64,000 nucleotides of DNA, taken from contig NZ_CP011144.1 in NCBI RefSeq assembly GCF_000972865.1, positions 1,364,001 to 1,428,000 of the forward strand. Reading direction: 5' to 3'. Positions 56,971-64,000 of this stretch are shown piece after piece. Made by a program: the position numbers and the translations under genes. The stretch's first letter is position 1; each line of letters begins with the position of its first letter. Below the pieces are notes generated by a model. It searched no databases, was not told where the DNA came from, and saw only the letters and a program-made list of their open reading frames with translations. The DNA comes from Pseudoxanthomonas suwonensis. Lineage in GTDB: Bacteria > Pseudomonadota > Gammaproteobacteria > Xanthomonadales > Xanthomonadaceae.

Positions 56971-57066
56971 TGCAGGAGCTGACTTCAGTCGGCGACACGG
57001 GCGCCAGGACAACGAGGGCGTCGCCTGTGCCGACGGCGTCGCGTCGCGGGCAAGCCCGGCTCCTAC
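56971..57066. repeat. GCAGGAGCT...GGCTCCTACC repeat, copy 5
   Basis: Follows copy 4 after 24 bases, in tandem. Its right end carries the TAG stop of the convergent flavoprotein gene (complement of CTA at 57063-57065). Confidence 0.75.
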
Positions 57067-57950
57067 CCACGCGGCGCGAACGGCAACTCGCCGTGCACGT
57101 GCAGCGCCGCGACCGCTGCCTGCCCGACCGCGACCGATATCTGGTTCAGGCCGCTGACGATGTCGCCGATCGCGTACAGACCAGAAACCCGCGTGCGCTG
57201 GTGCGCATCGACCGGGATCTCGCCGGCGCCGGTGAGCGCCACCCCCGCTTGCGCGGCCAGGTGCGCACTGCTGCGGCAGCCCAGGAACGGATACACGGTG
57301 TCGAACCAGTAGCAGCCGTCGTCCAGCGCGTATCCGCAGCGTTTGCCGTCGAACACCAGCTGCCCTTTCGCCGGCAGCACGCGCACGTCGATGCCGTCGA
57401 GGTCAGCGGCATCGCCGTCCCTGTCGGTCGGCAACAGCGACAGGCGCGCGGTGTAGCCGCGCAGGAAGCGCGCGTGCGAGACGATGGCGTCCCAGGGACC
57501 GTGGATGCCGATCTCGCGGTCGCTGACCTCGTAGGCGTCGCACACCGGGCACAGCCGCAGCGCGCCGCAGGCCACTGCCTCCTCGACGCAGGGGATGTCG
57601 GGCAGCCGGTCCGCCAACCCGGTGGCGAGGATGACCGCGCGCGCCTGCCAGCACCGCCCGTCCTCGCCCTCGATCCGGAAGCCGGTCGCGGACCGTGCCA
57701 GCGCGGCCACGCTGGCCTGCTCGAAACGCGCACCGAAGGACTCGGCCTGGGTGCGCAGCCGCGCCAGCAGTTCCTCGCCGGAGATGCCGTGCGGGAAACC
57801 TGGGCAGTTGTTGCTCTCCGGTATCCAGCGCGCGCGGCTGCGGCCGGCATCCAGCACCCGGCAGGCGCGGTGCAGCCGGCCCAGGTAGATCGCGGCGGTC
57901 AGCCCGGCCGGGCCACCGCCGATCACGATCACATCCACCACATCGTCCAC
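57063..57950 (-). CDS. Thioredoxin-reductase-like FAD oxidoreductase
   Basis: 295 residues from GTG at 57950 with GGAGG 5 bases upstream. FAD-binding VIVIGGGPAGLTAAIYLGRL at the N-terminus, redox pair in LCPVCDAYEVSD (Cys-x-x-Cys) and the second FAD site SGLYAIGDIVSGLNQISVAVGQA. Length and order match the TrxB/AhpF-C family. The E-V rather than the usual loop after CPVC, and an ALATGL variant of ATG, place it outside typical TrxB; the electron acceptor is unknown. Confidence 0.85.
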   Translation of the reverse strand: MDDVVDVIVIGGGPAGLTAAIYLGRLHRACRVLDAGRSRARWIPESNNCPGFPHGISGEELLARLRTQAESFGARFEQASVAALARSATGFRIEGEDGRCWQARAVILATGLADRLPDIPCVEEAVACGALRLCPVCDAYEVSDREIGIHGPWDAIVSHARFLRGYTARLSLLPTDRDGDAADLDGIDVRVLPAKGQLVFDGKRCGYALDDGCYWFDTVYPFLGCRSSAHLAAQAGVALTGAGEIPVDAHQRTRVSGLYAIGDIVSGLNQISVAVGQAAVAALHVHGELPFAPRG

Positions 57951-58024
57951 GCCCGCCTCCGTCACCGCGTCCACCGCACCATAGAAGGTGCCCGTGAAGA
58001 CCGTGCAGAGCCGCCCCCTCAAAT

Positions 58025-58043
58025 GGGGTCAGGTACATTTTCC
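58025..58043 (+). repeat. GGGGTCAGGTACATTTTCC repeat unit, isolated copy
   Basis: Followed by CTGCGTACCGCAG(A)TCGAACCGG, which recurs at 62358-62382. This is one end of the element that is clustered at 62192-62520. Confidence 0.8.
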
Positions 58044-58142
58044 TGCGTACCGCAGATCGAACCGGAGCCGTCGTTCCCGGCAAGCGATAAGCCTGCCCCT
58101 TGCGGACGACAGGCGTGAAGGCGGTGCGGGTCCGGCGCCTGG

Positions 58143-59285
58143 CTAGCCGGCTGGCGCCAGCACCTCCACCAGCGCGCGCCGGGCGACTGCGTTCTCCTCC
58201 GGCCGGCCGATGGTGATCCGCAGCCAGGTCGCATAGGGCGGGAACGCGCGGGCGACGCGCACGCCGCGCTCCAGCAGCTTCGCCGCCAGTTCGGCATGCG
58301 GCCGGCCGCCGTCGAAGAACACGAAGTTGCCCGCCGGTTCGGCATGGCGCAGGCGCAGGCGTCCGAGCAGCGCCAGCCACTGCCGGCGCTCGGCCGCCAC
58401 CGCCTGCCGCACCGCGGCCACGTGCGCGGTGTCCTCCAGGCTGGCCACCGCGGCGGCGACCGACAGCTGGTTCAACCCGTGCGCCGATCCCACGCCGCGC
58501 GCCGCCAGCTCCCGCGCCAGCGGCAAGGGCGCGATCGCATAGCCGATCTGCAACCCGGCCAGCCCGTGGATCTTGCCGAAGGTGCGGAACACCACGACGT
58601 TGGCGCCTTCGCGCAGCAGCCGCGCCGCGGTCAGGCGGGCGGCATCGTCGCGGTAGTCGAGGTAGGCCTCGTCCACGATCGCCAGGGTCCGTCGCGAGAC
58701 CTCGCGCAGGAACGCGTCGAACGCGCCGCCCTCGCTGAGCGTGCCCGAGGGATTGTGCGGATTGACCACGAACAGGGCGCGGGTGCGCGGCCCGACCGCG
58801 GCCGCCAGTCCCGGCAGGTCGTTATGCAGGCGCGCGTCCAGCGGCACTTCCACCGCGCGGCCGCCGAACGGCGCGGCCGCGTCGACCAGCGCGCCGTAGC
58901 CGGGCACCGAGTAGACGAACTCGCCGCCACCGCCGCCGATGGCCAGGTGCTGCCCCAGCGCCTCCAGCACCTCGCCGACCAGCACCTGCTCCGGCGCCAC
59001 GCCTTCGATGCGGCCGATCTGCGCGCGCAGCGCCTGCGCCTGGTCGGCGGTGACGTAGCGCGGCACCTCCGCCAGCGCGCGCTGGATGGCCTGCACCGCG
59101 CGCGGCGAGGGGCCGAAGCTGCTCTCGTTGAGGTTCAGCCGCAGCGGCGCGGCGGCGTCCGCGCCGGCGGCGGCCGCGCCCGGCCACGAGCGCGCCGCCG
59201 GTGCCCCCAGCAGCGCGGCGCCCGCCGCGCCGAGGACGCCGGCCCGCAGCCACTGCCGGCGCGAGGGGTCGAAGTCGCGCGCCAT
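58143..59285 (-). CDS. Tat-exported PLP aminotransferase, HisC-like
   Basis: 380 residues. GAGGAGG lies 5 bases before the ATG and overlaps the end of the receptor gene. The N-terminus FDPSRRQWLRAGVLGAAGAALLG is a twin-arginine signal (S-R-R-Q-W-L). The fold-type I aminotransferase follows: LRLNLNESSFGPSP, VVNPHNPSGTLS, VDEAYLDY and the PLP lysine in RTFGKIHGLAGLQIGY. HisC-type enzymes are normally cytosolic; here folded export with cofactor is expected, giving a periplasmic enzyme. Histidinol-phosphate is thus an unlikely substrate. Confidence 0.88.
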   Translation of the reverse strand: MARDFDPSRRQWLRAGVLGAAGAALLGAPAARSWPGAAAAGADAAAPLRLNLNESSFGPSPRAVQAIQRALAEVPRYVTADQAQALRAQIGRIEGVAPEQVLVGEVLEALGQHLAIGGGGGEFVYSVPGYGALVDAAAPFGGRAVEVPLDARLHNDLPGLAAAVGPRTRALFVVNPHNPSGTLSEGGAFDAFLREVSRRTLAIVDEAYLDYRDDAARLTAARLLREGANVVVFRTFGKIHGLAGLQIGYAIAPLPLARELAARGVGSAHGLNQLSVAAAVASLEDTAHVAAVRQAVAAERRQWLALLGRLRLRHAEPAGNFVFFDGGRPHAELAAKLLERGVRVARAFPPYATWLRITIGRPEENAVARRALVEVLAPAG

Positions 59286-59295
59286 GCCGGCCTCC

Positions 59296-61944
59296 TCAGA
59301 ACCGCGTTTCGATCCGCGCATAGTAGTAGGCACCGCTCCAGCCGAACGGCGACAGTTCGCTGTACGGGAACACGCCGAAGGTGTCGGCGCCGGACACCTG
59401 TGGGGTGGTGGCGATGTTGCGGGTCGGATAGGTGTTGAAGACGTTGTTGGCACCCAGGACCAGCCGCAGGTGGTCGCTGACGTCGAAATGCACGTCCACG
59501 TCCGCCACCCACTTCGGCTCCAGGATCTGGATCACGTCGAAGTTGCCGGCGGTCCCGGCCTCGGTGGGCCGGGTGACGAAGCGGGTCGACCCTTCCCCGA
59601 AGCGGGCGACGTTGGCCGCGCTCTGGTTGGTGGCGGCCACCCCGCGCACCTCGCCGTAGCGGTGCCCGGACAGGCCCGCGCCCCAGCGCCGCGCGTTCCA
59701 GGCCAGTGCCAGGATCAGGTTGTCGCGCGGCTGGCCGCGCTCGACGCGGGTGCGTTCGATCACGTCGAACAGCGGCGTGCGCACGCCGAGCGCGGTCAGC
59801 TCCGCGGGTGTCGACGCCACCCGGGTCAGTTCGGTCTCGTTGCGGTTCCAGGCGGCGGTGGCGGTCAGGGAACCGGCGTCCAGCTCCCACAGGTAGCGCG
59901 CCGAGACGTCCACGCCGGAGGTGCGGGTGTCGGCGGCGTTGCTGAAGTAGCGCACGCTGGTCACCCCGGGCGAACCGAGCGCGGCCAGATAGTCGCGGAT
60001 CGCGGTGGAACCGGCGGCGTCGACGAAGTTGCTGGACAGGAAGATGCGGTCGTCGATGTCGATCCGGTAGACGTCCACCGAGGCCACCAGGCCGCGCCAG
60101 CCCCAGGTCAGGCCGGCGGTGTAGTTGCGCGCCTCCTCCGGCTCCAGCGGACGCGCGCCGAGCGCGCGCGCCTCCACCGAGTCCACCGGCGCGGTGCGCA
60201 CCAGCACGTACTCGGGCAGGCCGGTGACGACGTTGTTGAGCGTGCGGCTGCTGGTGGAGCTGAAGTACTGCTGCGCCAGCGCCGGCGCATGGAAGCCGCT
60301 GCTGGCCGAGGCGCGCAGCGCCACCCCGCCGCCCAGCGCGTAGCGCAGCGCGAGCTTGCCGTTGGTGGTGTTGCCGAAGTCGCTGTAGTCCTCGAAGCGC
60401 AGCGCGAGCGAGGCCAGCAGCCGTTCGCCCAGTTCGCTCTCGACTTCGGCGTAGGCGGCGACGTTGTGGCGGCTGTAGTCGCCGGCGTCGCCGGGCTGGA
60501 TGCCGGCGAAGCCCTGCGAGCCGATGGTCGGCACGCTGCCGGCGGCCGGTCCGTCCAGCACCCGGTACGGTCCCCAGACGTAGGAGGCCTCCTCGCCGGG
60601 CGAGATGCCGTAGCTGTCGCGGCGGTACTCGGCGCCGAGCACCAGCTGCAGCGGCGCGCTCCAGCCGATCTCGAAGCTGTTGGCGAAATCCAGGTTGGTG
60701 GTCCACTGGCTCGATTCCAGCGCGCCGTTGTAGAACGCGGTCGGGCTGGCCGTGCCCAGGGTGGCGTTGAGCGTGTTGCGGGTGCGGTACTCCAGCTCGT
60801 TGCCGCCATGCACCGTGCTCAGGTCCCAGCGCCAGTCGCCGGCGCGTCCCTTGATGCCGGCCGCCAGCGAATGGTTGGTGCTGGTGGTGTCGACCCAGGG
60901 CAGGAAGCCGTCCGGGTAGATCGCGCGCACGTTCTCCGGCTGCCCGGAGCGGCGCAGCGAGGCGTTGGAACTGCCATCGCTGATCCCGTAGCCGCCGAAC
61001 GCATAGACCTGCAGTTCGTGCCCGCCGCCCAGCGGCTTGTCCAGGTTGCCGAACACGGTGCGCTCCACCGTGTCGGCCGAATCGGCGAAGCGCCACAGCG
61101 CGCCACGGTCGATCGTGGCCTCGCGCGGATCGGCCAGTGCGCCGCCGCCTATCGGCGCCAGGCCCGTGCCCGAACCGTAGCTGCCGGACAGGGCGACCGG
61201 CAGCCCGGTCACCGGATGGATGCCGAAGTACTGCTGGCGCGTGTCGGGCAGCGCGCGGTCGGCCGCCTCGCGGTCGCGGTAGTCGACGGTGAAATGCACA
61301 CCGCCACCTTCGGGGAAGCCGAACCCGGCGTTGAGGCTGGCCTTGCTGGTGTCGCCGCCGCCGTCGCGGGTGCGGCCGTGGCTGGCGACGCCCTCGAAGC
61401 CAGCGTCGTGGCGCAGGACGATGTTGACCACGCCGGCGATGGCGTCGGAGCCGTACTGCGCCGAGGCGCCGTCGCGCAGCACTTCGATCCGCTCGATGGC
61501 GCTGACCGGGATCGCGTTGAGGTCGGTGGACACCGCGCCCTTGCCGACCGTGCCGCCGGTGTTGACCCAGGCACTGGTGTGCCGGCGCTTGCCGTTGACC
61601 AGTACCAGGGTCTGGTCCGGCGACAGGCCACGCAGGGTGGCCGAGCGGATGTGGGTATTTCCGTCCGGCGTGGTCGGGTGCGGGAAGTTGAACGACGGCA
61701 GCAGCGACTGCAGCACCTTGCTGATGTCGGTGTGGCCACTGCGGCGGATGTCCTCGGCGCTGAGCACGTCGATCGGCACCGGCGAAGTCAGCACGGTGCG
61801 CGGCTGGGTGCGCGAGCCGGTGACGGTGACCCGGTCGAGGGTGGCGACCTCGGCCTCCTGGGCGGCGGCGAAGGCGGGAGACAGCAGGGTGGCGATCGCC
61901 GCGGACAGCAGGGTCCGCCGCGAGCCGGAGGCGCGGTAGGTCAT
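59296..61944 (-). CDS. TonB-dependent receptor, substrate unknown
   Basis: 882 residues. Signal peptide (LLSAAIATLLSPAFAAA), TonB-box-like TLDRVTVTGSR, and a plug with IDVLSAEDIRRSGHTDISKVLQSL, TLRGLSPDQTLVLVNGKRRH and IERIEVLRDGASAQYGSDAIAGVVNI. The barrel ends YYYARIETRF. It belongs to the VLVNGKRRH subgroup, common in this family, whose ligands are mostly unknown. Only 10 bases separate it from the Tat-exported aminotransferase, so uptake of an amine or amino-acid-like ligand is a fair guess. Confidence 0.9.
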   Translation of the reverse strand: MTYRASGSRRTLLSAAIATLLSPAFAAAQEAEVATLDRVTVTGSRTQPRTVLTSPVPIDVLSAEDIRRSGHTDISKVLQSLLPSFNFPHPTTPDGNTHIRSATLRGLSPDQTLVLVNGKRRHTSAWVNTGGTVGKGAVSTDLNAIPVSAIERIEVLRDGASAQYGSDAIAGVVNIVLRHDAGFEGVASHGRTRDGGGDTSKASLNAGFGFPEGGGVHFTVDYRDREAADRALPDTRQQYFGIHPVTGLPVALSGSYGSGTGLAPIGGGALADPREATIDRGALWRFADSADTVERTVFGNLDKPLGGGHELQVYAFGGYGISDGSSNASLRRSGQPENVRAIYPDGFLPWVDTTSTNHSLAAGIKGRAGDWRWDLSTVHGGNELEYRTRNTLNATLGTASPTAFYNGALESSQWTTNLDFANSFEIGWSAPLQLVLGAEYRRDSYGISPGEEASYVWGPYRVLDGPAAGSVPTIGSQGFAGIQPGDAGDYSRHNVAAYAEVESELGERLLASLALRFEDYSDFGNTTNGKLALRYALGGGVALRASASSGFHAPALAQQYFSSTSSRTLNNVVTGLPEYVLVRTAPVDSVEARALGARPLEPEEARNYTAGLTWGWRGLVASVDVYRIDIDDRIFLSSNFVDAAGSTAIRDYLAALGSPGVTSVRYFSNAADTRTSGVDVSARYLWELDAGSLTATAAWNRNETELTRVASTPAELTALGVRTPLFDVIERTRVERGQPRDNLILALAWNARRWGAGLSGHRYGEVRGVAATNQSAANVARFGEGSTRFVTRPTEAGTAGNFDVIQILEPKWVADVDVHFDVSDHLRLVLGANNVFNTYPTRNIATTPQVSGADTFGVFPYSELSPFGWSGAYYYARIETRF

Positions 61945-62191
61945 CGGGGGTGTTTCCTGGGGGAGGAAGTGGCGCGGTCCGCGGACGCGGACGCAGTTGC
62001 CCGTCAGCGGCTCATCGGTTTCGACATCGGACGGGAGGCATGGGCATGGCGAGGGAGACCGGATGAATACGCGTAATACCTGCGTAACATTTGTCTCACA
62101 TCGACCGGCCCTGCTACCGGTGCCGAATCATGAGTTTCCGGAATCTGCAAATAACCGCGCACGCGCACGCCGATCGAAAGAGGGCCCGAAA
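61945..62191. other. Upstream region of the receptor gene
   Basis: No gene is seen. It includes the presumed receptor promoter (minus strand) and AT-richer sequence around 62060-62160. No named operator was recognised. Confidence 0.5.
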
Positions 62192-62520
62192 GGGGTCAGG
62201 TACATTTTCCTGGCTAGCGCAGGTTGAGGCCGAAGTCCCTCACGCAAAGCTGCGCAGCAGCCTGATTGCGCGGACGTCCAGTTGCAAAGCAAGGCGCAGA
62301 TCTATCGGCAGAAATAAACCTGACCCCATTTAGCGCGAATGGGGTCAGGTACATTTTTCCCTGCGTACCGCAGGTCGAACCGGGATCCTCACTCCATACT
62401 GCGCAACAACTTGGCCACGCATACAGTCCCTGCAAGACGGACAACCGCGGGCGAGAAAATGAACCTGACCCCATTTAGGCAGGAGGCCTCGTACGCAAGA
62501 AAATGAACCTGACCCCTTTT
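62192..62520. repeat. Cluster of GGGGTCAGGTACATTTT / AAAATGAACCTGACCCC repeats
   Basis: Five copies of an 18-base unit in alternating orientation: 62192-62210 (+), 62311-62327 (-), 62341-62359 (+), 62455-62472 (-) and 62499-62517 (-). Each plus/minus pair encloses about 100 bases. The unit is known from REP-like elements and transposase surroundings in proteobacteria. No transposase gene is in the window. Confidence 0.8.
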
Positions 62521-62535
62521 TGGGGCCACGCGAGG

Positions 62536-64000
62536 TCAGGGGGCGGCGATCGGAAGTTCCACGTCCATCAGTGTGGCGTCGTCGCGGTCGGGGCGGATGC
62601 GGAAGCCCAGTTGCTGGCACATCGTCAGCATGGTCACGTTCTCGCGCAGCACCTGGCCTTCCACCATCTTCAGGCCGATCGAGCCGGCGTACTCGATCAT
62701 GATCCGCATCAGCTGCCAGCCGATGCCGTAGCCCTTCAGGTCCGAGCGCACCAGGATCCCGTACTCGCCGCGCTCGTAGTTGGCATCGGCGAGCAGGCGC
62801 ACCGCGCCGAGCATCTCGCCGCTGTCCGGGTCGATCGCCACCAGCGCGATCGAGCGCGCGTAGTCGAGCTGGGTCAGGCGGGCGATGAACTCGTGGCTGA
62901 AGTGGCGTACCGCCGAGAAGAAGCGCAGGCGCAGGTCTTCGTCGGTCACCTTGTCGAAGAACCGGCGGAACAGTTCTTCGTCCTCCGGCCGCACCGGGCG
63001 CACGAACATGCGCCGGCCGTGGGCCAGCTCCACCTGCCGCTCCCACTCCTTCGGGTACGGCCGGACCACGAAGCGCGAATGCCACGGGCCCTTCTGCACC
63101 GGCCCCTCGTACGCGGCGATGGCCACCCGCGCGTCCACCGCGATCACCCCGTCGCGGTCGGCCAGCAGCGGGTTGATGTCCAGCTCGCGGATCTGCGGGA
63201 TGTCGGCGGCCAGCTGCGCCAGCTTGACCAGCACCAGCGCCACCGCGCGCTCGTCGGCGGCGAGCACGTCGCGGTAGGCCTTGAGGATGCGCGAGACCCG
63301 CGTGCGCGAGATCAGCTCGTGGGCCAGGCGCAGGTCCAGCGGCGGCAGCGCCAGCGCCTTGTCGTCGATCACCTCCACCGCGGTGCCGCCGCGGCCGAAC
63401 ACGATCACCGGGCCGAAGGTGGCGTCGTCGGCCAGGCCGGCGATCAGTTCGCGCGCCTTGGGCCGGGTGATCATCGGCTGCACGGTGACGCCATCGATAC
63501 GCGCCTCCGGGCGCGCCTGGCGGGCGCGCTCGAGGATGCCGGCGGCGGCCTCGCGCACCGATGCCTCGCTGGCGAGGTTCAGGCGCACGCCGCCGACGTC
63601 GGACTTGTGCACGATGTCGGGCGAGAGGATCTTCAGCGCCACCGGCAGGCCCTGCGCCAGCAGCGGCGCGGCGGCGGCCGCGGCGGCATCGGCATCGGTG
63701 GCCAGGGTCACCGGCGTGATCGGGATGCCGTAGGCGCCCAGCAACGCGGTCACCTCAAGCGGATCCAGCCAGCGCCGGCCTTGGGCCAGCGCGCCGGACA
63801 CGATCGCCTGCGCGGCGGCGGCGTCGACCACGAAGTCCTCCGGCAGGCTGGGCGGCGTTTCCATCAGCGCCTGCTGCGCCTCGCGGTGGCGGACCAGGTA
63901 CATGTAGCCGCGCACCGCGTCGGACTCGGTCGCGTAGGTGGGCACGTCGGCGGCATTGAGCGCGGCGATGGCGGCGTCGTGCCCGCCCAGCCACACTCCC
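62536..64000 (-). CDS. Acyl-CoA ligase / GNAT acetyltransferase fusion, C-terminal part
   Basis: The frame is open from 64000 down to a stop at 62536, so the N-terminal part lies outside. The visible 488 residues have an ATP-grasp part (LLGAYGIPITPVTLA, KILSPDIVHKSDVGGV, MITRPKARELIAG, FGRGGTAVEV, LDINPLL) and a C-terminal GNAT domain (RPVRPEDEELFRRFF, GEYGILVRSDLKGYGIGWQLM). This is the Pat/YfiQ layout: an ADP-forming acetyl-CoA-synthetase-like body fused to a lysine acetyltransferase. In Salmonella Pat acetylates acetyl-CoA synthetase. Confidence 0.9.
   Translation of the reverse strand, partial: GVWLGGHDAAIAALNAADVPTYATESDAVRGYMYLVRHREAQQALMETPPSLPEDFVVDAAAAQAIVSGALAQGRRWLDPLEVTALLGAYGIPITPVTLATDADAAAAAAAPLLAQGLPVALKILSPDIVHKSDVGGVRLNLASEASVREAAAGILERARQARPEARIDGVTVQPMITRPKARELIAGLADDATFGPVIVFGRGGTAVEVIDDKALALPPLDLRLAHELISRTRVSRILKAYRDVLAADERAVALVLVKLAQLAADIPQIRELDINPLLADRDGVIAVDARVAIAAYEGPVQKGPWHSRFVVRPYPKEWERQVELAHGRRMFVRPVRPEDEELFRRFFDKVTDEDLRLRFFSAVRHFSHEFIARLTQLDYARSIALVAIDPDSGEMLGAVRLLADANYERGEYGILVRSDLKGYGIGWQLMRIMIEYAGSIGLKMVEGQVLRENVTMLTMCQQLGFRIRPDRDDATLMDVELPIAAP

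What the first reader, a model, noticed from the sequence alone, without database searches (positions are those of the whole stretch)
58143..61944. TonB receptor coupled to a Tat-exported HisC-like aminotransferase
The receptor stop, the GAGGAGG site and the ATG of the aminotransferase overlap closely. A twin-arginine signal (S-R-R-Q-W-L) predicts a PLP enzyme folded before export. A periplasmic aminotransferase fed by an outer-membrane receptor would be an unusual nutrient or signal pathway. It is my best candidate for an undescribed system in the window.
Basis: partly seen in the sequence, partly recalled or inferred. Interest (0 to 1): 0.75.

Follow-up and report, generated by a model that had tools for sequence, protein, structure and literature searches.

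The report
Receptor paired with atypical exported aminotransferase
A bacterial outer-membrane uptake receptor is encoded directly next to an apparently exported enzyme of the aminotransferase family that has lost the parts which normally grip the phosphate of its vitamin B6 cofactor, so the pair may import and handle free vitamin B6, or another amino compound, outside the cytoplasm.

Summary
In detail: an 882-aa TonB-dependent receptor (59296-61944, -) is followed after 10 bases by a 380-aa HisC-like aminotransferase (58143-59285, -) with a twin-arginine signal. The pair is real but patchy: 11 of 395 family genomes sampled carry a close aminotransferase homologue, and 14 of 16 genomes with a signal-bearing homologue have the receptor directly upstream.

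"PLP enzyme" needs revising. In one clade (19 tree rows, support 100/99) the elements that bind the PLP phosphate are gone: the Gly-Ser/Thr helix start, the Ser before the catalytic Lys, and the phosphate Arg. All three are lost in 18 of 18 full-length members; outside, the Ser and Arg stand in 89 of 89 and Gly-Ser/Thr in 87 of 89. Ring- and carboxylate-binding residues are kept.

Best reading: a receptor-fed periplasmic transaminase using a non-phosphorylated B6 vitamer as co-substrate, as pyridoxamine-pyruvate aminotransferase does. Genome support is weak: 2 of 3 PdxJ-lacking genomes among 164 carry the pair, but one has PdxS. The main rival is a rearranged PLP enzyme acting on an imported amino compound, like PtaA or PvdN. 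Export, cofactor and substrate are untested.

The parts
59296..61944 (-). TonB-dependent receptor, 882 aa; plug and beta-barrel; signal peptide judged by eye
   Evidence: close orthologues (76-82% identity) in 8 other genomes of the family sample, each beside the aminotransferase
58143..59285 (-). apparently exported HisC-like (class I/II) aminotransferase, 380 aa, of the clade that lacks the PLP-phosphate site
   Evidence: model pLDDT 90.8
59166..59285 (-). predicted twin-arginine signal region (residues 1-40; R9-R10 in SRRQWLRAG, hydrophobic stretch, Ala-rich end), by eye
   Evidence: mostly low confidence in the model
59291..59295 (-). GGAGG, likely ribosome-binding site directly behind the receptor's stop
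58962..58976 (-). residues 104-108 GEVLE where relatives have a Gly-Ser/Thr helix start: PLP-phosphate element lost
   Evidence: models
58572..58577 (-). G237-K238: catalytic Lys kept, preceding Ser replaced by Gly
58548..58550 (-). Q246 in place of the PLP-phosphate Arg
62139..62156 (-). upstream motif GGYTATNTGNNNATNCCG shared with some orthologues; possible regulator site, regulator unknown

Best explanation
A two-gene uptake-and-conversion unit. The receptor brings a scarce small molecule across the outer membrane; the exported HisC-fold protein acts on it in the periplasm. Shown by sequence: the enzyme keeps the Schiff-base Lys (K238), the residues that hold the pyridine ring (D205, Y208, N175) and the substrate carboxylate Arg (R356), but has lost three elements that grip the 5'-phosphate of PLP, and its gene is linked to the receptor. 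Inferred: export; that its ring-bearing partner is a B6 vitamer without phosphate (pyridoxamine or pyridoxal, free or conjugated), bound and released as a co-substrate as in pyridoxamine-pyruvate aminotransferase, with the amino group exchanged against an oxo acid; and that the product enters the cell and meets a pyridoxal kinase. The receptor would then be a B6-vitamer receptor.
For: All three phosphate elements are lost in 18 of 18 full-length clade members; in 89 homologues outside, Ser before Lys and the Arg stand in 89 of 89 and Gly-Ser/Thr in 87 (the other two have Gly-Ala and Gly-Val) (split by tree clade). K238, D205, Y208, N175, R356 stand in 18 of 18. The losses sit on one branch, 100/99, whose nearest neighbours keep the elements. 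PM-AT of Mesorhizobium loti is a precedent with a Lys-pyridoxal Schiff base and Asp to N1 (PMC9309667 section 7, read); that its Glu68 blocks the phosphate is recalled, that paper is not held. PdxJ is absent from 3 of 164 family genomes and 2 of those 3 carry the pair (p=0.002, post hoc); one of them (G089) also lacks PdxS. All 5 pair carriers in that sample have a pyridoxal kinase over the cut-off, against 42 of 164 overall (p=0.0009, but the kinase follows genera). All 11 pair genomes have a hit of 69-77 bits to PF08543, which in those 5 lies at the kinase. In Actinobacillus a pseudogenised TonB-dependent transporter lies 293 bp downstream of p5pB, a gene of a PLP ABC importer (PMC8427247, passage). 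The Opitutaceae member has a signal that looks Sec-type by eye, without twin arginine, which fits an enzyme needing no cytosolic PLP.
Against: G092, one of the two PdxJ-lacking carriers, has PdxS and so is probably no auxotroph; 8 of 11 pair genomes have PdxJ; G069 lacks PdxJ but is 87% complete and shows a 20.7-bit PdxS-like fragment under the cut-off. The third PdxJ-lacking genome of the sample (G095) has no pair and only a remote receptor homologue with no relative of the window aminotransferase beside it. None of the neighbouring window genes scanned is a B6 gene. Searches listed no paper about a TonB-dependent B6 receptor. Y77, the position of the class I residue that likely touches the phosphate from the other subunit, is kept. 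L046 (cytosolic relative) lies near NMT1-type ABC transporter genes, two amidases and an amidohydrolase, L047 near NMT1-type transporter genes; neither points clearly to B6.
Confidence: 0.4

Rival explanations
1. A periplasmic transaminase that still uses PLP, held by rearranged contacts, and removes or adds an amino group on an imported amino compound (amino acid, peptide or siderophore), as PtaA and PvdN do on pyoverdine.
For: PvdN and PtaA travel folded with PLP through Tat (PMC6206403, passages). Other receptor genes lie near canonical Tat-type aminotransferases or a Tat-type class V enzyme: L126, L129, L131 and L168, L169; in Bacteroidota L059 SusC- and SusD-like genes precede a canonical Tat-type aminotransferase. 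K238 and all ring contacts are kept.
Against: Joint loss of three phosphate elements that relatives keep. No Fur-like box stands out upstream (best 9-12 of 19 in 12 regions, no shuffle control), so no sign of a siderophore link.
Confidence: 0.32
2. A binding protein or pseudo-enzyme: the fold holds an imported ligand, for example an aldehyde or amine through K238, and passes it on without transamination.
For: Lost cofactor-phosphate site; position directly behind a receptor.
Against: K238, D205, Y208, N175, R356 are invariant in 18 of 18, unlike a decayed enzyme.
Confidence: 0.15
3. The linkage is only co-inheritance of two neighbours with unrelated functions.
For: Patchy presence; in G188 only the last 82 residues of the receptor are found beside an intact aminotransferase, and in G069 no receptor lies on the 4,555-base contig.
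Against: 14 of 16 genomes keep the pair while flanks change; most junctions overlap or nearly touch. A remote receptor relative in G300 and G412 is followed by another Tat-type aminotransferase.
Confidence: 0.08

Closest known systems
PtaA, periplasmic transaminase A of Pseudomonas fluorescens (NCBIfam NF051461, with PRK09105)
   Same: HisC-like sequence, Tat-type signal; PtaA is Tat-exported and transaminates in the periplasm (PMC6206403, passages)
   Different: Window protein scores 177.8 against a cut-off of 500, lacks the phosphate elements that PtaA-like relatives keep and groups elsewhere; the genome has a nearer PtaA relative at 3545404-3546489, 449 bits, also under the PtaA cut-off but over that of PRK09105
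PvdN, Tat-exported PLP enzyme of pyoverdine maturation
   Same: Tat-exported enzyme acting in the periplasm
   Different: Relative of the class V proteins beside the remote receptors L168 and L169, which match SufS models best and PvdN weakly, not of the window protein
Pyridoxamine-pyruvate aminotransferase (PM-AT, EC 2.6.1.30) of Mesorhizobium loti
   Same: Fold type I aminotransferase with Lys and Asp contacts to a B6 ring without phosphate (section 7 of PMC9309667); the likeness in function is inferred
   Different: Belongs to class IV in that paper; cytosolic as far as I recall; no receptor link known to me; any likeness would be convergent
Histidinol-phosphate aminotransferase HisC; 3LY1 as nearest solved structure
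   Same: Overall fold (TM 0.79 by query, 29% identity)
   Different: 185.6 bits against the HisC cut-off 276.55; signal sequence; phosphate site lost

Membership tests
HisC (TIGR01141) | Score over the curated cut-off | tested here: not met
   185.6 of 276.55 bits
PtaA (NF051461) | Score over the curated cut-off | tested here: not met
   177.8 of 500 bits
PtaA (NF051461) | Tat export | tested here: inconclusive
   Twin-arginine motif in 13 of 13 loci, absent in L049; no export assay
Class I/II PLP-dependent aminotransferase | Fold and catalytic Lys, Asp, Tyr, carboxylate Arg | tested here: met
   Aminotran_1_2 1.8e-36; residues kept in 18 of 18; fold
Class I/II PLP-dependent aminotransferase | PLP-phosphate site: Gly-Ser/Thr, Ser before Lys, Arg (roles per PMC9309667, passages) | tested here: not met
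   0 of 18 in the clade have any of the three; outside 87, 89 and 89 of 89. Y77 is kept
Pyridoxamine-pyruvate aminotransferase | Turns over pyridoxamine or pyridoxal without PLP | not testable with these tools
   needs an enzyme assay
Pyridoxamine-pyruvate aminotransferase | Sequence membership (class IV in PMC9309667) | tested here: not met
   Only Aminotran_1_2 hits in Pfam at E<=0.01; no model made for PM-AT itself was searched
TonB-dependent receptor | Plug and barrel domains | tested here: met
TonB-dependent receptor of a named substrate (BtuB, FepA, others) | Score over a curated cut-off | tested here: not met
   All 24 NCBIfam families listed at E<=0.01 are below their cut-offs

The most novel reading that the evidence does not exclude
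The pair is a dedicated outer-membrane vitamin B6 (or B6-conjugate) acquisition unit whose periplasmic enzyme is a PLP-independent aminotransferase that arose once inside the HisC/PtaA branch of class I/II aminotransferases, separately from pyridoxamine-pyruvate aminotransferase. In rhizobial relatives the same enzyme stays in the cytosol.
Probability: 0.33. Interest if true: 0.85.

Novelty: new variant of a known kind. Interest (0 to 1): 0.68.

Why it matters
If right, it would name a substrate class for an orphan TonB receptor, show a further origin of transamination with free B6 rings, and give a periplasmic enzyme that need not carry PLP. Even if the B6 reading fails, a clade of aminotransferases that keeps the chemistry but drops the cofactor-phosphate site is testable with one purification.

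Tried and rejected
Known RNA at the locus: Rfam, no match at gathering scores in 57000-63000. Iron regulation: best match to a recalled Fur consensus was 9-12 of 19 in 12 upstream regions; no shuffle control was run. Sulfur/CysB reading of the upstream motif: one paper listed, not read. B6 auxotrophy as a firm correlate: weakened by PdxS in G092 and by G095, which has no pair. Receptor function by solved relatives: mostly plug-level matches to PirA, FepA, CirA and BtuB. Register of the phosphate loop: MAFFT opens a four-residue gap, whereas the two models suggest a gapless start, V106-L107 opposite G107-S108 of L059; both remove the Gly-Ser. Viral and metagenome collections were not searched. 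The receptor was not modelled.

Limits: one search split rows by the loop motif itself, which is circular for that element; one search repeats the count with the split taken from the tree clade and gives the same 18 and 89. In both, 37 duplicates and 5 partial or divergent rows (L049 twice, L090, L091, L004) were dropped; L004, a remote aminotransferase of this genome, has Gly before Lys and Lys for the Arg. The outside rows were found by likeness to the window protein, so they are no census of aminotransferases. One search finds only relatives sharing short peptides, so its 57 loci are no census either.

Literature: PMC6206403 (passages), PMC9309667 (passages; section 7 whole), PMC8427247 (passages), PMC12393044 (passages). 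All others were seen as listings only. Statements on absence from print rest on searches in the held library. Roles of HisC or PM-AT residues not found there are recalled.
Full report
What is there. On the minus strand the receptor gene 59296-61944 ends 10 bases before the ATG of the aminotransferase gene 58143-59285; the stop overlaps GAGGAGG. The receptor has Plug and barrel domains and the enzyme is Aminotran_1_2. The first 40 residues carry SRRQWLRAG and a hydrophobic run.

Is the pair conserved? Of 395 family genomes, 11 have a close aminotransferase homologue (E<=1e-90), in 8 of 54 genera; among the 17 sampled genomes of its genus only the window's own has it. Of these 11, 9 have an intact receptor ORF directly upstream. 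G188 keeps only a stretch matching receptor residues 801-882. G069 shows none on its 4,555-base contig. Junctions run from -4 to +14 bases in 11 of 13 loci and the twin arginine is present in 13 of 13; L049, not in that call, lacks it. Flanking genes differ between the window, L035, L041 and L036-L039, so the pair is the unit. In the three Nitrobacteraceae homologues (50-53% identity) the protein starts without a signal and no receptor homologue lies within the fetched flanks; two of the three, L046 and L047, lie near NMT1-type ABC transporter genes. The Opitutaceae member has the receptor, but both genes are interrupted in that assembly and the signal looks Sec-type by eye.

What is the enzyme? 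Curated models place it near HisC, PRK09105 and PtaA but far below their cut-offs. The genome's best match to PtaA is a different gene, 449 bits, itself under that cut-off of 500. The tree unites 15 rows from Lysobacteraceae and kin (one, L040, from a record titled Bacillus subtilis), 3 Nitrobacteraceae rows and the Opitutaceae row at 100/99. Rows L103-L106, which keep the phosphate elements, join next at 92/89, and the PtaA-like rows form another clade at 100/100. The Opitutaceae row is a long branch and only its C-terminal piece was used.

The unexpected point. In class I aminotransferases R254, G103, T104, S243 and S245 of E. coli AAT contact the PLP phosphate, and Y65 likely does from the other subunit (PMC9309667, passages). 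In the window clade the Gly-Ser at the helix start is replaced (GEVLE), the Ser before Lys is Gly or Ala, and the Arg is Gln or Ala. Over distinct full-length rows, none of the three stands in any of 18 clade members; outside, the Ser and the Arg stand in 89 of 89 and Gly-Ser/Thr in 87 of 89, the other two having Gly-Ala and Gly-Val. The Opitutaceae pieces agree: GDLLS, D before Lys, S for Arg. Residues for the ring and the substrate carboxylate stay in 18 of 18, and so does Y77. Models of the window protein (pLDDT 90.8) and of a canonical relative, L059 (89.0), suggest that V106-L107 stands where the relative has G107-S108; this rests on secondary structure and residue counting, as I had no coordinates.

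Reading. Keeping the Schiff-base Lys and ring contacts while losing the phosphate site is what one expects of a fold type I enzyme that transaminates free pyridoxamine, as PM-AT does. I therefore propose a B6 vitamer as co-substrate, brought in by the receptor. Independent support is modest. PdxJ is missing from 3 of 164 family genomes of at least 95% completeness, and 2 of these are among the 5 pair carriers in that sample (p=0.002, post hoc); G069, 87% complete, lacks it too. Against this, G092 has PdxS, 8 of 11 carriers have PdxJ, and kinase presence (5 of 5 carriers, 42 of 164 overall) follows genera: 9 of 9 genomes of the window's genus in that sample have it, 8 of them without the pair. 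In Actinobacillus a pseudogenised TonB-dependent transporter lies 293 bp downstream of p5pB of a PLP importer (PMC8427247, passage), a hint that such links occur.

Wider pattern. Thirteen remote receptor relatives (42-47%) were found. Two (G300, G412) are followed by a Tat-type class V aminotransferase. Beside the other 11 I saw no relative of the window enzyme by blastp and recognised no aminotransferase from the start of the neighbouring ORFs; they were not scanned with Pfam. Elsewhere in the family a receptor lies with a Tat-type flavin amine oxidase, a RidA-like protein and a canonical Tat-type aminotransferase: L126 by Pfam, with like-looking genes in L129 and L131, some of them confirmed. 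In Bacteroidota L059 a SusC-like receptor, a SusD-like protein and a putative lipoprotein precede a canonical one; in L054 the SusD is confirmed, and L058 was judged from N-terminal sequences. Genes for receptors and periplasmic amine chemistry thus lie together repeatedly; the window clade is the variant without the phosphate site.

What is not shown: export, cofactor, substrate, regulation. The upstream motif GGYTATNTGNNNATNCCG occurs once in the window (0.05 expected with up to one mismatch; 5 of 100 shuffles had one). Among 11 orthologue upstream regions the best match has 0 mismatches in L041, 1 in L036-L039, 2 in L040 and L109, and 3 to 5 in L035, L042, L044 and L045. I defined it after seeing these sequences.

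Noticed in passing
L126:5356-12155, with similar order in L129 and L131: TonB receptor, Tat-type flavin amine oxidase, RidA-like protein, PtaA-like Tat-type aminotransferase and azurin-like protein in one stretch (L131 also has a cytochrome c-like gene); a possible periplasmic amine-oxidation cluster.
   Followed up: partly
L168:5938-10037 and L169:5950-9927: A remote relative of the window receptor is followed by a Tat-type class V aminotransferase, nearest SufS models, weakly PvdN.
   Followed up: partly
L059:589-7143; L054:7381-11912; L058:7369-10313: Bacteroidota SusC/SusD-type genes, a 147-aa putative lipoprotein and a Tat-type HisC-like aminotransferase in a row.
   Followed up: partly
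window 62139-62156 and upstream of L036-L041 and L109: Shared motif upstream of the receptor gene; regulator unknown; weak or absent in L035, L042, L044, L045.
   Followed up: partly
L049:3373-4565: Opitutaceae member of the clade beside the receptor, with a Sec-like signal by eye instead of twin arginine; both genes are interrupted in that assembly.
   Followed up: no
genomes G092, G089, G095: The 3 of 164 sampled family genomes without PdxJ; G092 has PdxS instead, G089 and G095 show neither.
   Followed up: partly
L114 (G188): Intact aminotransferase beside a remnant matching receptor residues 801-882.
   Followed up: partly
L040: Record titled Bacillus subtilis carries a Stenotrophomonas-like pair, probably a contaminated or mislabelled assembly.
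   Followed up: no
L037:7177-8964 and 979-2877, similar ORFs in L039 and L040: A convergent FAD-linked, berberine-bridge-like oxidase with a twin-arginine start lies downstream of the pair in L037 (same start seen in L039 and L040); a DUF885 protein lies divergently upstream in L037.
   Followed up: no
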